This document shows, in pieces, positions 13,613 through 22,790 of a DNA stretch of 37,148 nucleotides. Positions within the stretch are counted from its first letter, which is position 1. Each line of letters opens with the position of its first letter. The stretch lies in the IMG/VR virus record IMGVR_UViG_3300042522_000171, positions 1 to 37,148 of that record; one strand, written 5' to 3'. This DNA is from a virus. The notes under the pieces are model-generated. The model ran no database searches. It had not been told where the DNA came from and saw only the letters and a program-made list of their open reading frames with translations. A program made the position numbers and the translations under genes.

Positions 13613-15946
13613 TTAACAAAAAAAGTAAGTGGATTCAAGTACCGAGTCGAGATCTAGATCACCAATGATGGGTGGTTCTGTCTCAGCTCCTATTGCTTCA
13701 GCAAACTCCTGAAGGAAGTTGCCGTTAGCGAAGATTTCGTAGTAGGTTTCCCTGACTACACGATTCAACTCAGACATATCTGTGGCGCGGCACAGCACTG
13801 AGTCGTGGATGACGGTGAACGGGGCGGTGAATTTAAGGAATGCCAGATGTAAGAGGCTTGCATCGGCGCTGTGAATAAGGTTTGGCGCTGTACTGGACTT
13901 GTGTCCATTTACATCCGGTCCTTCGTAACCAGTTGTGAGATTAACTTCACAACGACCAAGTATTTGAAGTTTGACCGTCTTAACTTTCCTCTTTCTTCGA
14001 TTCTGAAGAACGATGAAACCTGACGGTGTTTCCCATTTCAAGTGGTCTGCGCCCCGCTTGAATGCAGCGCCAACTTCTTGGCGGATCCAGTCCATGACCC
14101 GCATTGGCCCTGGCACAACTTCATACATGGCCTCCCGCACAGCGTTAACGATGAGGGTTAACTCTTCAGGTGTGAACTCAGCACCCTTTTCTTTCAGCGC
14201 ATCACGGATGTACTGACGATTACTGTGCTTAGTTGCATTGTAAGGAATAGTCATAACTGTTCTCTTTGTGACCTTCCGATCTAAGAGAGAAGCCAAGTTC
14301 TGTGGAAGCTTTGTCTTAGCAACCTCAGCAACAACTTTGTATGCATCACTAGGCATTTCACCTGGCAATACATTGACTAACCTTGCTGTTGATTGATCCC
14401 TCGCCATACCAGCGAGAATCTGGAGGCCAGAACAAGTAGCATCGACTGCTACGGGTAGGGATGTCCAACTCCTGGAACATTCAATCACTGTTGCATAGAA
14501 CTCCTCACACGAAGAGAGGAATTGCCAGGGCTCAGATGCCCCTTCCCAATCACACAAATTGCTGAGTGGATCGGTTGCAACACGAGAGATGAGGTCGTGG
14601 TTGTCCTTGACCCAATCCTGTCGCTCCTTCATGGTGGCTTTGTCGAGGCCGTAGGTTGTAGCGACCTGAAAGGCCAACCACTGCTCCGCTTCAGGAGTCA
14701 TGAAGCTGGGATCAGCAAATTTCAGGAGGGATTTCCCAAAATCTGTGTCCTGAGGAGTAAGAAAAGCTGGGATTGGATAAGTGCGACCTCGATAGTCAAA
14801 TGACCACGGCAGATAGAACTTGTCTCTCTCTTTGAAGAGTTTGACAGTTTCCATTGTCATTCTTGTACGGCATGACCGTTTGAATGCTGCAGCGTTGTGG
14901 TTCATTGCCTCGGCTGCTTGGCGTCTGTATTCGTGCCGGGCCTCTTTGTTGTCCGCTATGTCCCAAGGTTTGTTGGGAATGGGTAGTTCAATAATTGGGA
15001 TGAACTTACCCACCTTGTAGCCACGCTCCATCAGGGTCTCGGCCACCTCAACCACAAAGGTGTTCAAGGTGTACGCGGTCCGCTGGAGCTTGTTCAAAAA
15101 CAGGAGAGGAGCGTTCCCCTGTATTAGTCCGTCTTCGCCCCTGCGGACCAGCTCATGGCCCTTCATGACCTCGTTGGTGAGGTAGCCGCCATGGCTGATC
15201 GGCGACCAATCCCGTGGTGGGATCAGCATCGGCCAGGCCATCGGAGCAAACAGCATGGCGTTCCGCATCAGCTCCTCCTTCATCGAGGCGAAGATGAGGC
15301 TGGGGACAATGAGGGTGGGGGTGCCGTTCGGACGCTTGATGGTGATCCGTTCAAACCATCCCGTGGCCTGCATGACACAGTCCAGCAGCCAGCCGCCCAG
15401 CTTGGCCCGAACCAAGGCACCCCAGGTGTCCCAGTTGTAGTCATGGCGGTTCATCAGGGTCTTGGCGACCGTGAAACGCTGCTGAGTGCCGCAGGAGCTG
15501 TGCCAGTAGCTCCTCCTGATGCGATCCATTAGGTCGGGGTCTTGCGCCTCGTACCACCGCAGCTGGGCCTCCTGTTCCAGGGCCTGTCCAATGGAGGTGA
15601 TCACGTTGGCGATCTCATTGGCCCGGTCCTTGGGACTGAAGACCTTGTCAAAGGTCAGCTTGAGGGCGATGGCCGCAGCTGCCTCCGGCTCGATCCCCTC
15701 CAGGTATTGGTGAATCGTGGCGAAGTCCCGCCCGTTCTTGCCCGCGTGGATGCGGCTCAGCGTATCCGTGATGACCCGTGCCACCTCCGGTAAGGCTGCA
15801 TTGATGCTGGGGGCTCCATAGACCGAGGCAGAGGCGTAGGAGCGCTCCTCCATCTTGAGTGTGTTGTCTAGCAGCCCTTGACGACCGCAGGCCGATGCCT
15901 GGCGCTCAAAAGCGAGCTGCTCCTCGATCAGAGCGGGTGTTGACAT
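13613..15946 (-). CDS. Single-subunit RNA polymerase (T7 gp1-like), 777 aa
   Basis: Catalytic motifs of the T7 family are complete: VDATCSGLQILAGMARDQ (first Asp), KRTVMTIPYNATKHSNRQYI (Lys and Tyr of the O helix), KWETPSGFIVLQNRR before the specificity loop, and FTVIHDSVLC (second Asp). The end, TYFFC, matches the aromatic C-terminus of the family. It is about 100 residues shorter than T7 (883), mainly before the palm, as in other cyanopodoviruses. It transcribes the middle and late genes. The 3' two thirds has base usage like its neighbours while the 5' third (about 15030-15946) is clearly more GC-rich, suggesting a recombination joint inside the gene. Two repeat motifs and a terminator precede it. 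Confidence 0.97.
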   Translation of the reverse strand: MSTPALIEEQLAFERQASACGRQGLLDNTLKMEERSYASASVYGAPSINAALPEVARVITDTLSRIHAGKNGRDFATIHQYLEGIEPEAAAAIALKLTFDKVFSPKDRANEIANVITSIGQALEQEAQLRWYEAQDPDLMDRIRRSYWHSSCGTQQRFTVAKTLMNRHDYNWDTWGALVRAKLGGWLLDCVMQATGWFERITIKRPNGTPTLIVPSLIFASMKEELMRNAMLFAPMAWPMLIPPRDWSPISHGGYLTNEVMKGHELVRRGEDGLIQGNAPLLFLNKLQRTAYTLNTFVVEVAETLMERGYKVGKFIPIIELPIPNKPWDIADNKEARHEYRRQAAEAMNHNAAAFKRSCRTRMTMETVKLFKERDKFYLPWSFDYRGRTYPIPAFLTPQDTDFGKSLLKFADPSFMTPEAEQWLAFQVATTYGLDKATMKERQDWVKDNHDLISRVATDPLSNLCDWEGASEPWQFLSSCEEFYATVIECSRSWTSLPVAVDATCSGLQILAGMARDQSTARLVNVLPGEMPSDAYKVVAEVAKTKLPQNLASLLDRKVTKRTVMTIPYNATKHSNRQYIRDALKEKGAEFTPEELTLIVNAVREAMYEVVPGPMRVMDWIRQEVGAAFKRGADHLKWETPSGFIVLQNRRKRKVKTVKLQILGRCEVNLTTGYEGPDVNGHKSSTAPNLIHSADASLLHLAFLKFTAPFTVIHDSVLCRATDMSELNRVVRETYYEIFANGNFLQEFAEAIGAETEPPIIGDLDLDSVLESTYFFC

Positions 15947-15968
15947 TCTGTCTCAAGTGGAATGGTTG
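15947..15968 (-). promoter_or_regulatory. Repeat motif E (AACCATTCCACT), directly before RNA polymerase start
   Basis: On the minus strand this reads CAACCATTCCACTTGAGACA and ends one base before the RNA polymerase ATG. It belongs to the set of AACCRTTCCACT repeats found before early genes. Its role, promoter, operator or RNA signal, is not established. No better ribosome site for the polymerase is visible. Confidence 0.5.
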
Positions 15969-15986
15969 TCGCTAGATCCGCTGCTA

Positions 15987-16012
15987 GTTCCTTGTGACGA
16001 GTGGAAACCAGA
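15987..16012 (-). promoter_or_regulatory. Repeat motif D (GGTTTCCACTCGTCACAAGG)
   Basis: A second copy lies about 40 bases upstream of motif E and just after the terminator at 16022-16043. It keeps TTCCACT and the CACAAGGA tail of the other copies. Placed between a terminator and the RNA polymerase gene, it is where a promoter would be expected. Confidence 0.5.
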
Positions 16013-16021
16013 CAGCCATTG

Positions 16022-16043
16022 AAAAGCCGGGCTTTAACCCGGC
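16022..16043 (-). terminator. Intrinsic terminator downstream of attP, before RNA polymerase
   Basis: On the minus strand GCCGGG, a six-base loop and CCCGGC form a strong stem followed by TTTT. It would stop transcripts coming from the integrase operon or, in an integrated prophage, from the host tRNA gene before they reach RNA polymerase. Confidence 0.8.
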
Positions 16044-16074
16044 ATGTATCCACAGTGCAAATTCAGTCGGTCCG

Positions 16075-16116
16075 AGAACCTGAAACTAGCGCGTCTACCA
16101 ATTCCGCCACATCCGC
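16075..16116 (-). other. Putative attP core: 5' 42 bases of a tRNA-Leu gene
   Basis: Read on the minus strand, the sequence begins GCGGATGTGGCGGAATTGG, followed by TAGACGCGCTAGTTTCAGG and TTCT: acceptor 5' strand, D arm and anticodon loop (CAG) of a bacterial tRNA-Leu. After base 16075 it stops resembling a tRNA, so this is a fragment and not a functional gene. It lies 107 bases downstream of the integrase. Prochlorococcus podovirus P-SSP7 is reported to carry a 42-base match to part of its host's tRNA-Leu gene just downstream of its integrase; length and position here are the same. The exact edges need the host gene. Confidence 0.85.
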
Positions 16117-16222
16117 GTGGGGATTCCAGCGATGAGACTCAGGAGAGCCGCCCCGCTTGGCACCTCAAAAGAGTACCAGATTGGGGGTCACTAGACGAGC
16201 TAGATCCGGCCTTTACACGGAG

Positions 16223-17098
16223 TCACAACGCGTTGATCGCATCGACACGGGCCTTGTCCGTGACCTTTGCATATCGTAACGTTGTCTCCACGTTGGCGTG
16301 TCCCATGAGACCCATGAGGGTACGGATGGGCACCCCGGCCTCGGCGCACCATGTGGCAAACGTGTGACGCAGGGAGTGGAACGTCCAACTGTCATCTTTC
16401 TTCACAGAGTAATTCCTTACTTTTTTGAAGGCACGAATCAGTTGGTCCTTACCCCCAGGCCAATCATCGCCGAAGATCAGGGTCTCGCGCTTGGCGTATT
16501 CACTGCGTCCATGTAACACCGGGAAGATGCGATCATGGATCGGCACCGTGCGGTAATTCTTGGACTTGGTTTCAAACCCCTCACGACCGCCGATGTAAAT
16601 CTGCTTGGTCGAAAGATCGAGATCCTTGACCCGCAGTTTCAGCAATTCCCCCTGGCGCATGCCGGTGTAGGCCGCGACCACGATGATGGCGGCCACATCG
16701 TCCCGTGCAAAGGGATCCTGGGCGGCTTCCACCATGGTCTCCACCTCCGGCTTGGTGAACCACGTCAGACGGTGCTCCCCCTCCTCCCGGCGCTGGAAGC
16801 GGGGTGGGTTGAAGTCGATCACCCCCATCGCCGCACAGTGATTGAGCACGGTCGAGACCGCGCTGATCACCCGGTTGATGGTGGAGCTGGACATCTGCCG
16901 CTCCGTCTCCAAATCAATGCACACCTGCGTCATGATCAGGGGCGTGATTTTTACGAGTGGAAATGAGTTACCAACACAATTCGTAAAGTGTTGGCAGTTG
17001 TAGGTGTTGGTGGGGCGGGAGTTGCCCCGACGCCAGGCGTCCCTGGTTTTGAAGGTGAAGTCAACAGCTTCCCCCCAGGTTTTGACGGATTCAATCAC
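16223..17098 (-). CDS. int: Tyrosine recombinase (phage integrase), 291 aa
   Basis: The catalytic domain has all expected residues: Arg in AAYTGMRQGELLKLR (about 141-155), HSLRHTFATW (His-x-x-Arg), LMGLMGHANVETT (His) and the nucleophile Tyr in LRYAKV near the end. The N-terminal part holds an SAM-like core-binding region (TQVCIDLETERQMSSSTINR). It would recombine the nearby tRNA-Leu fragment with the host gene. The start is a GTG at 17098 that overlaps the stop of the MarR-like gene, so both are co-translated. The gene is GC-rich relative to the replication genes. Confidence 0.95.
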   Translation of the reverse strand: MIESVKTWGEAVDFTFKTRDAWRRGNSRPTNTYNCQHFTNCVGNSFPLVKITPLIMTQVCIDLETERQMSSSTINRVISAVSTVLNHCAAMGVIDFNPPRFQRREEGEHRLTWFTKPEVETMVEAAQDPFARDDVAAIIVVAAYTGMRQGELLKLRVKDLDLSTKQIYIGGREGFETKSKNYRTVPIHDRIFPVLHGRSEYAKRETLIFGDDWPGGKDQLIRAFKKVRNYSVKKDDSWTFHSLRHTFATWCAEAGVPIRTLMGLMGHANVETTLRYAKVTDKARVDAINAL

Positions 17099-17483
17099 GG
17101 TCGAGAATCTCCTTGATCTTGAGAACCATTTGGTGTCCCTTGGGTGTGAGCTTCACGATCCGGCGGCGGTGGTTCAGGGGATCGACTGTCTTGACAATCA
17201 GTCCCATACCAGGCTTGCCCAATCGGTGATGCGTACTCAGCCAGTCTGTGTTGCGGCTCGTGCTGTTGGGTGACATACCCAAATCCTCTTGGATCGCTTG
17301 CAGGTGGCAAGGATTGTGGGAGGCGATGTAGCAGAAGACCGACACCAGCTGGCCGGGGACTTCAACATCCTTCTCCCGAAACAACTCGTGGACGCGGAGG
17401 AGGCGCCACATCACGAGGTCCGTCTTCTCTTTGAGGAGTGGACTGCTTGTTTCGGGCATCGGTGCGGTTGAAGAACCAATCAC
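17091..17483 (-). CDS. MarR-like winged-helix regulator, about 130 aa
   Basis: The arrangement is that of a MarR-type winged helix: a helical start (SPLLKEKTDLVMWRLLRVHE), the recognition region LQAIQEDLGMSPNSTSRNTDWL near 78-99, then a wing with VDPLNHRRRIVKLTPKGHQM near 105-124. These proteins bind DNA as dimers and respond to ligands or act as simple repressors. The stop overlaps the integrase GTG start, so it is a candidate regulator of integration. The start is a GTG at 17483; an ATG eight codons later (MPETSSPLL) is possible. Confidence 0.7.
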   Translation of the reverse strand: MIGSSTAPMPETSSPLLKEKTDLVMWRLLRVHELFREKDVEVPGQLVSVFCYIASHNPCHLQAIQEDLGMSPNSTSRNTDWLSTHHRLGKPGMGLIVKTVDPLNHRRRIVKLTPKGHQMVLKIKEILDRD

Positions 17484-22118: not shown

Positions 22119-22790
22119 TTACTCTTTAGCCCACATTGCACGACACACATTCGGTAATTCCGAATAGAGAACGTCTTGGATTTGACCAGCAATTACAGCG
22201 TGTTCACGTTGAGTTCCGTTAGCAGTCCTGAGGTCGCAATAGTGCAACCAAGACCTGATGGTTCCATTCATGTACAACCTCGATGGAGACGACATAGGCA
22301 AGACATCACGAGCACACTCCTTTGCTACACCACTACTGACCATCTCTCGATACAGGTCTTCTGATTCAGCAAACAGTTGACCAATACGACGATAGAAGAT
22401 CTCTTTCTTTTCAGTACTGAGATCATCAATACTATTTTGACGGTTCTTCGTATCTTGTCTCCGAAGTGACGGGATGACGGGAGTACCAATGGTAGTGACA
22501 TCAGCATACCGTTGACTGAACTCCTGAAAGGAGAAGCTCCGATGCCGAAGGATCTGTGCAGCAATGGATCGAGTCGTATTAATCTCCACACACATGTTCA
22601 CCATTTCAAAAGGTGACCAATGGTTATGGGTAATAAGATACTTAATTAGTTTAGCACTGGTCTCAGTGTTTGTTTGATTGGATGGGTTAGATACCCTAGC
22701 CATGTAAGAGATAAGGTCTTCAGCGTTAGGAGTGATGTGAACAAGTTGTACAGAGTGTGCCAAAGAGATGCCGTGGTTAACAGAATGCAT
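22119..22790 (-). CDS. thyX: Flavin-dependent thymidylate synthase ThyX, 223 aa
   Basis: The ThyX signature RHRSFSFQEFSQRY lies at about 82-95, and the C-terminal part RSWLHYCDLRTANGTQREH is typical of the substrate-binding region. The enzyme methylates dUMP to dTMP using methylene-tetrahydrofolate and reduced flavin, which would complement the phage RNR in making DNA precursors. It lies 388 bases downstream of the terminase, separated by an AT-rich repeat block that may carry its own promoter. Length is standard for the family. Confidence 0.96.
   Translation of the reverse strand: MHSVNHGISLAHSVQLVHITPNAEDLISYMARVSNPSNQTNTETSAKLIKYLITHNHWSPFEMVNMCVEINTTRSIAAQILRHRSFSFQEFSQRYADVTTIGTPVIPSLRRQDTKNRQNSIDDLSTEKKEIFYRRIGQLFAESEDLYREMVSSGVAKECARDVLPMSSPSRLYMNGTIRSWLHYCDLRTANGTQREHAVIAGQIQDVLYSELPNVCRAMWAKE

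What the first reader, a model, noticed from the sequence alone, without database searches (positions are those of the whole stretch)
16022..17098. Integrase with a 42-base tRNA-Leu fragment, and a terminator that insulates RNA polymerase
The fragment is the 5' half of a tRNA-Leu(CAG) gene ending in the anticodon arm, 107 bases after int, like the P-SSP7 case. Because the phage carries the 5' half, integration would leave the whole tRNA downstream of the int operon, and the host tRNA promoter would face the phage RNA polymerase gene. The strong terminator at 16022-16043 lies just there and would block read-through. This makes a specific lysogeny layout.
Basis: partly seen in the sequence, partly recalled or inferred. 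Interest (0 to 1): 0.7.

Follow-up and report, generated by a model that had tools for sequence, protein, structure and literature searches.

The report
Cyanophage integration site with insulated half-tRNA
A virus of picocyanobacteria carries the first half of a host leucine-tRNA gene next to its integrase, with a likely promoter before it and a stop signal after it, so that inserting into the host would rebuild the tRNA under a viral promoter; the basic layout is known from related viruses, but the promoter-plus-stop packaging, and a wild single cell with such a virus inserted, seem to be unreported.

Summary
Int (16223-17098, -) is followed after 106 nt by 39 nt identical to the 5' half of the host tRNA-Leu(CAG) gene, then by an intrinsic terminator before the phage RNA polymerase gene. 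The layout is known: S-TIP37 has the same core, and S-TIP37 and P-SSP7 integrate at tRNA-Leu, without stable lysogeny (Shitrit 2021, PMC8776855).

What I add:
(1) The terminator belongs to attP, not to the polymerase gene. It lies 23-40 nt after the core in 54 of 63 dereplicated loci, including 12 of 12 where ssb, not RNAP, comes first. It is essentially absent from phages without attP.
(2) 56 of 63 loci, the window included, have an extended -10 promoter motif between int and core (about 4 expected). The tRNA is normally single-copy and integration separates it from its own promoter, so this is probably a replacement promoter.
(3) Wild Synechococcus single-cell genome AG-670-B23 holds a 45.5-kb integrated T7-like phage with the predicted junctions: whole tRNA behind int; host leader, half tRNA and terminator at the other end. 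Published work argued such prophages are absent from hundreds of single cells.

"Insulates RNA polymerase" is too narrow; lysogeny is not shown; promoter and terminator activity are inferred.

The parts
16223..17098 (-). int, tyrosine integrase, 291 aa
   Evidence: PF00589 E 3.6e-29; PHROG integrases; catalytic residues conserved
17091..17483 (-). regulator gene overlapping the start of int (relatives annotated gp0.7/MarR-like)
   Evidence: phrog_9665 transcriptional regulator E 6.9e-35; annotation of relatives
16189..16208 (-). putative P-arm Int sites, CTARYG-type repeats just after the int stop (inferred)
   Evidence: CTARYG enriched here in 63 loci, 40 vs 7.8 expected
16170..16178 (-). phage-borne extended -10 promoter motif TGGTACTCT (activity inferred)
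   Evidence: TGNTANNNT in 56/63 loci, shuffles 3.6, opposite strand 0, coding 1/185
16117..16132 (-). conserved phage leader TCGCTGGAATCCCCAC before tRNA position 1
   Evidence: TGGAAT in 35/63 loci, about 1 expected; identical in S-TIP37
16078..16116 (-). attP core: 39 nt identical to the 5' half of host tRNA-Leu(CAG); 16084-16078 is the anticodon loop, the predicted strand-exchange region; the phage-specific TC follows at 16077-16076
16022..16043 (-). intrinsic terminator GCCGGGT-TAAA-GCCCGGC-TTTTC
   Evidence: conserved in position in 54/63 loci
15969..16006 (-). putative P'-arm Int sites (TTCCACTCG, GAACTAGCAG, GGATCTAGCGA), inferred
   Evidence: CTARYG 58 vs 2.9 expected in this interval over 63 loci
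13613..15946 (-). T7-type RNA polymerase gene, next gene after the terminator
   Evidence: PF00940 E 4.5e-67

Best explanation
The region is the integration module of a T7-like cyanophage aimed at the (normally single-copy) tRNA-Leu(CAG) gene of a picocyanobacterium. Int would exchange strands at the anticodon loop. Because the phage holds the 5' half, integration separates the tRNA from its own promoter: attR becomes int, phage promoter, phage leader and whole tRNA; attL becomes host tRNA promoter, half tRNA and terminator. The phage-borne extended -10 promoter would keep the tRNA expressed. The terminator would stop the tRNA-driving promoters from running into the next phage gene: the phage promoter before integration, the host promoter at attL after it. 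Shown by sequence: core identity, conserved promoter motif and terminator, the terminator's link to attP, and the predicted junctions in one natural relative. Inferred: promoter and terminator activity, Int arm sites, integration by this phage itself. Integration is probably rare and transient, as measured in relatives.
For: Core equals the host tRNA-Leu 5' half and equals S-TIP37 attP, which is experimentally proven (PMC8776855). Terminator after the core in 54/63 loci vs 9/315 shuffles, 12/12 ssb-type loci; among named phages 9/10 with attP vs 0-1/12 without. Promoter motif 56/63 vs 3.6, TATAAT in Prochlorococcus phages. tRNA 43-mer once in 197 of 198 genomes with it. In-silico attR tRNA intact. 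Integrated relative in AG-670-B23 with both junctions.
Against: No transcript data; the motifs could have other roles. No integrated copy of this attP group was found. The natural case is one single-cell assembly and only distantly related (RNAP 35%). No host-type promoter is seen between terminator and RNAP, so the terminator might also limit RNAP expression in the lytic cycle. S-CBP1 and a clade of loci have a hairpin without a good T run.
Confidence: 0.72

Rival explanations
1. The terminator simply ends the early/int transcript in lytic growth and has no role in integration.
For: It lies behind int in the free phage and would act there too; in most loci RNAP is the next gene.
Against: Phages with int but without att core (Syn5, S-CBP42; only two) lack it after int, and int-less phages lack it before RNAP.
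Confidence: 0.3
2. The TGNTANNNT motif is an Int or host-factor binding site of attP, not a promoter.
For: It sits inside the presumed P arm, where CTARYG repeats are also enriched; many copies read TGCTAC.
Against: The variable positions follow a -10 box (TA...T fixed, TGATAGGCT and TGGTACCAT accepted); Prochlorococcus phages have TATAAT there.
Confidence: 0.2
3. The AG-670-B23 prophage is an assembly or amplification chimera of free phage and host.
For: Single-cell amplification makes chimeras; reads and coverage were not available.
Against: Both reciprocal junctions are in one contig, exactly at att. The shared exact stretch is only 27 nt because the attR core has an extra base. No free attP or empty attB is elsewhere in the assembly.
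Confidence: 0.1
4. The phage is a true temperate phage with stable lysogeny.
For: int, attP, a regulator gene next to int, and one natural integrated relative.
Against: S-TIP37, with the same core and gene order, forms no stable lysogens and repressor homologues were not found in the group (PMC8776855).
Confidence: 0.1
5. The hairpin is a structural element of recombination, not a terminator.
For: Fixed distance from the core; some loci keep a long hairpin without a T run.
Against: The T run is on one strand only: 54/63 against 5/63 on the other.
Confidence: 0.08

Closest known systems
T7-like cyanophage int/attP modules: S-TIP37 and P-SSP7 (Shitrit et al. 2021, PMC8776855)
   Same: Int, then attP matching the first half of tRNA-Leu; 57/57 nt shared with S-TIP37 across leader and core; same gene order regulator-int-attP-RNAP-ssb.
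   Different: The window phage is a separate lineage (Int 41% identical to S-TIP37's; RNAP closest to S-SRP01). The promoter and terminator around the core are not discussed in the passages of that paper that I read.
pTN3-like integrases of archaea (reviewed in PMC8371274)
   Same: attB is the 5' half of a tRNA gene and the restored tRNA is driven by an element-borne promoter.
   Different: Archaeal; there int is split by integration and the tRNA uses the int promoter. Here attP lies outside int and a separate promoter motif sits between int and core.
tRNA-dependent lysogeny of actinobacteriophages (PMC10865867)
   Same: Integration at a tRNA gene, with the phage supplying what preserves tRNA function, including a phage promoter.
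   Different: Those phages carry a whole tRNA gene and short cores that do not rebuild the host tRNA; this one rebuilds it and supplies only its 5' part and promoter.
Common tRNA-targeting temperate phages carrying the 3' half (described in PMC10865867 and PMC8371274)
   Same: Tyrosine recombinase, tRNA target, tRNA restored after integration; exchange at the anticodon loop is one common type.
   Different: They leave the tRNA on its host promoter; the 5'-half arrangement does not.

Membership tests
T7-like cyanophage (Autographiviridae) int/attP module | T7-type RNAP and T7-like terminase in a cyanophage genome | tested here: met
   PF00940, PF14700, PF22530; best RNAP matches are cyanophages
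T7-like cyanophage (Autographiviridae) int/attP module | Tyrosine integrase with catalytic residues | tested here: met
T7-like cyanophage (Autographiviridae) int/attP module | About 39-nt perfect match to the first half of a cyanobacterial tRNA-Leu directly downstream of int | tested here: met
T7-like cyanophage (Autographiviridae) int/attP module | Integration into the host tRNA-Leu shown for this phage | not testable with these tools
   no integrated copy of this attP group in the collections; shown for S-TIP37 in PMC8776855
Classical temperate phage | Stable lysogeny with repressor-based immunity | not testable with these tools
   a regulator gene beside int is not known to be a repressor; relatives form no stable lysogens (PMC8776855)
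tRNA-dependent lysogeny | Phage encodes a complete complementing tRNA | tested here: not met
   ARAGORN finds no tRNA in the window; the record is 37 kb and may be incomplete
5'-half tRNA integration with element-borne promoter | Core is the tRNA 5' half, so the restored tRNA lies behind element DNA | tested here: met
   seen in a relative
5'-half tRNA integration with element-borne promoter | Element promoter active and driving the restored tRNA | tested here: inconclusive
   conserved extended -10 motif, no activity data

The most novel reading that the evidence does not exclude
T7-like cyanophages share a promoter-swap cassette (promoter, leader, tRNA-Leu 5' half, terminator) that places an essential, normally single-copy tRNA gene under phage control on integration and insulates the prophage from the host tRNA promoter; and such phages do occur as intact prophages in wild Synechococcus (AG-670-B23), against the published view that intact prophages are absent.
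Probability: 0.45. Interest if true: 0.75.

Novelty: new member of a known kind. Interest (0 to 1): 0.52.

Why it matters
Whether abundant marine picocyanobacteria carry T7-like prophages is an open question. The published case against lysogeny leans partly on finding none in hundreds of single-cell genomes; here is one with both junctions. A conserved promoter and terminator around the half tRNA suggest that the integrated state has been selected to be survivable, which purely accidental integration would not need. Both points can be tested in the existing engineered system (S-TIP37 in Synechococcus WH8109).

Tried and rejected
Searched viral contigs for attR of this attP group (whole tRNA 46-mer, or phage leader + core + host 3' side): none. 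Exact 41-mer in genome contigs: none. Idea that the terminator protects RNAP specifically: rejected, since it is present in 12 of 12 loci where ssb comes first. Idea of a host-type promoter between terminator and RNAP: no enrichment, rather a deficit. Idea that G363:C8 and G026:C3 are further prophages: contigs of 42-43 kb with phage RNAP; G363:C8 has an att core and terminator but no int by similarity; host flanks not demonstrated, so not counted. Two copies of the tRNA 43-mer in G320: they sit at the ends of two contigs with the same leader, so I read them as overlapping contigs. No held paper mentions AG-670-B23. The P-SSP7 genome paper is not in the library.

Full report
What is there. The window is an IMG/VR virus record of 37,148 b, a T7-like cyanophage whose closest named relative by RNAP is Synechococcus phage S-SRP01 (80.6% identical). 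Reading along the - strand: a regulator gene (17483-17091), int (17098-16223), a 106-nt gap, 39 nt identical to the 5' half of tRNA-Leu(CAG) (16116-16078), an intrinsic terminator (16043-16022), and the T7-type RNA polymerase gene (15946-13613). Int keeps the R-K-H-R-H-Y set. The terminator folds at -14 kcal/mol, z -3.8, and is the best of the local scan.

Core versus hosts. The exact 41-mer (core plus TC) is in no contig of the genome collection but in at least 119 viral contigs. Dropping the last bases finds the tRNA-Leu(CAG) genes of Synechococcus, Cyanobium and some Prochlorococcus; host and phage agree for 39 nt and then split, host ACTAG and phage TC. Some unrelated bacteria, mainly Saccharibacteria, share much of this conserved tRNA stretch. 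In a sample of 400 genomes of the family, 198 have the 43-mer and all but one have it once. The anticodon loop TTCAGGT between the stem arms CTAGT and ACTAG is the likely overlap region (inference).

The terminator goes with attP. I dereplicated 120 phage loci with the same core to 63. Of these, 61 have int just upstream; RNAP follows in 51, and in 12 ssb comes first. A terminator starts 23-40 nt after the core in 54 of 63, against 9/315 shuffles, 5/63 on the opposite strand, 1/63 upstream of the core and 5/121 in coding controls. All 12 ssb-type loci have it. Named phages with other tRNA-Leu cores (P-SSP7 and P-SSP2, anticodon TAA; S-CBP3 and SS120-1, CAA) also have a terminator right after the core. 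Phages with int but no att core (Syn5, S-CBP42) and phages without int (S-SBP1, S-CBP4, P-SSP10, P60, NATL1A-7, WH11-B, S-RIP1, S-B28) do not; two weak hits (S-RIP2, S-CBP42) lie inside coding sequence. Counting 9 of 10 against 0-1 of 12, Fisher p is below 3e-4; relatedness among phages is not corrected for.

A promoter before the half tRNA. Between int and core, 56 of 63 loci, the window included (TGGTACTCT at 16178-16170), have the extended -10 pattern TGNTANNNT; shuffles give 3.6 on average, the opposite strand 0, coding controls 1 of 185. Several of the other 7 show the motif a little further upstream when read by eye. P-SSP7, P-SSP2 and SS120-1 have TATAAT there. Host genomes show their own -10-like box about 30-45 nt before the tRNA in 54 of 75 cases. 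Integration would cut the tRNA from that host box and put it behind the phage motif. Repeats of the type CTARYG are enriched after the int stop and beyond the terminator (40 vs 7.8 and 58 vs 2.9 expected); I read them as Int arm-type sites, which is inference.

An integrated relative in nature. One genome locus (L220) had the host leader and core followed by phage-like sequence. It lies in Synechococcus single-cell genome AG-670-B23. Its contig (QCSL01000012.1, here G001:C12, 52,265 b) holds a T7-like phage of about 45.5 kb with int, RNAP, terminase, portal, DNA polymerase, helicase-primase and capsid-assembly genes; the nearest named RNAPs are those of Syn5 and SS120-1, 53-54% identical. At one end int is followed by a TGCTATATT motif and a whole tRNA-Leu(CAG) (2610-2526); at the other the host leader and core (48124-48086) run into a hairpin with seven T (the hairpin alone is not unusual by z-score). 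The flank beyond the attL core is collinear with the tRNA neighbourhood of many relatives, including an intact site in G163. The other flank has pieces 93% identical to chromosomes of relatives and a fasciclin-domain gene, so it is host-like, but it is not the sequence next to this tRNA in G163, so its synteny is not proven. The attR core has one extra base in the D-loop, so the crossover lies in the 27 nt shared by both junctions, which contain the anticodon stem-loop; no other copy of that stretch, hence no free attP or empty attB, is in the assembly. Its int has K and W at two histidine positions, which to my knowledge are accepted variants in tyrosine recombinases. In this phage RNAP lies before int and another gene follows the terminator. 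It is one case and a distant relative of the window (RNAP 35% identical).

Comparison with what is known. Shitrit et al. 2021 (PMC8776855) showed that S-TIP37, which has the same core, integrates at tRNA-Leu and needs int and attP for it, that P-SSP7 integrates too, that all attP motifs match the first half of tRNA-Leu, that integration touches 0.04-0.32% of cells, and that no stable lysogens form. [quoted passage not shown] AG-670-B23 qualifies that, although one cell in hundreds also fits rare, transient integration. With few exceptions, restored bacterial tRNA genes stay on their own promoter, and 5'-half cases with an element-borne promoter are rare (PMC8371274). In the Shitrit passages searched I found no discussion of a terminator or of a promoter before the core; its supplements and the P-SSP7 genome paper were not available.

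Verdict. Lysogeny is not shown. Promoter, terminator and arm-site functions are inferred from conservation only.

Noticed in passing
L254-L256 (G001:C12:2526-48124), Synechococcus single-cell genome AG-670-B23: About 45.5 kb integrated T7-like cyanophage between a whole tRNA-Leu(CAG) behind int and a half-tRNA with terminator; no held paper names this cell.
   Followed up: partly
L304-L310 (G090, G116, G057, G274, G157, G124, G272): Single-subunit T7-type RNA polymerase genes, about 25-31% identical to the window's, on host chromosomes; in five of these seven regions no other T7-phage gene was found by similarity within about 10 kb.
   Followed up: partly
L257 (G001:C48:3229-7803): A second, long T7-type RNAP (open frame 1069 aa) next to a different integrase gene in the same single-cell genome; similar long forms in G124, G272 and G035.
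   Followed up: no
L278:560-970 (G363:C8 near 20780): T7-like phage contig of 43 kb in a 1.2-Mb genome with a tRNA-Leu core and a hairpin with T run before RNAP but no int found by similarity.
   Followed up: no
G001:C79:83-139, G274:C1:1198943-1199002, G315:C35:6439-6498: Partial copies of the 3' part of tRNA-Leu(CAG), suggesting that other elements use the 3' side of the same gene.
   Followed up: no
window 15947-16021 (-): No sigma70-like promoter motif between terminator and RNAP, here or in relatives, so how RNAP is transcribed past the terminator in the lytic cycle is unexplained.
   Followed up: partly
window 22119-22790 (-): Thymidylate synthase gene (PHROG 85, E 2.6e-78).
   Followed up: no
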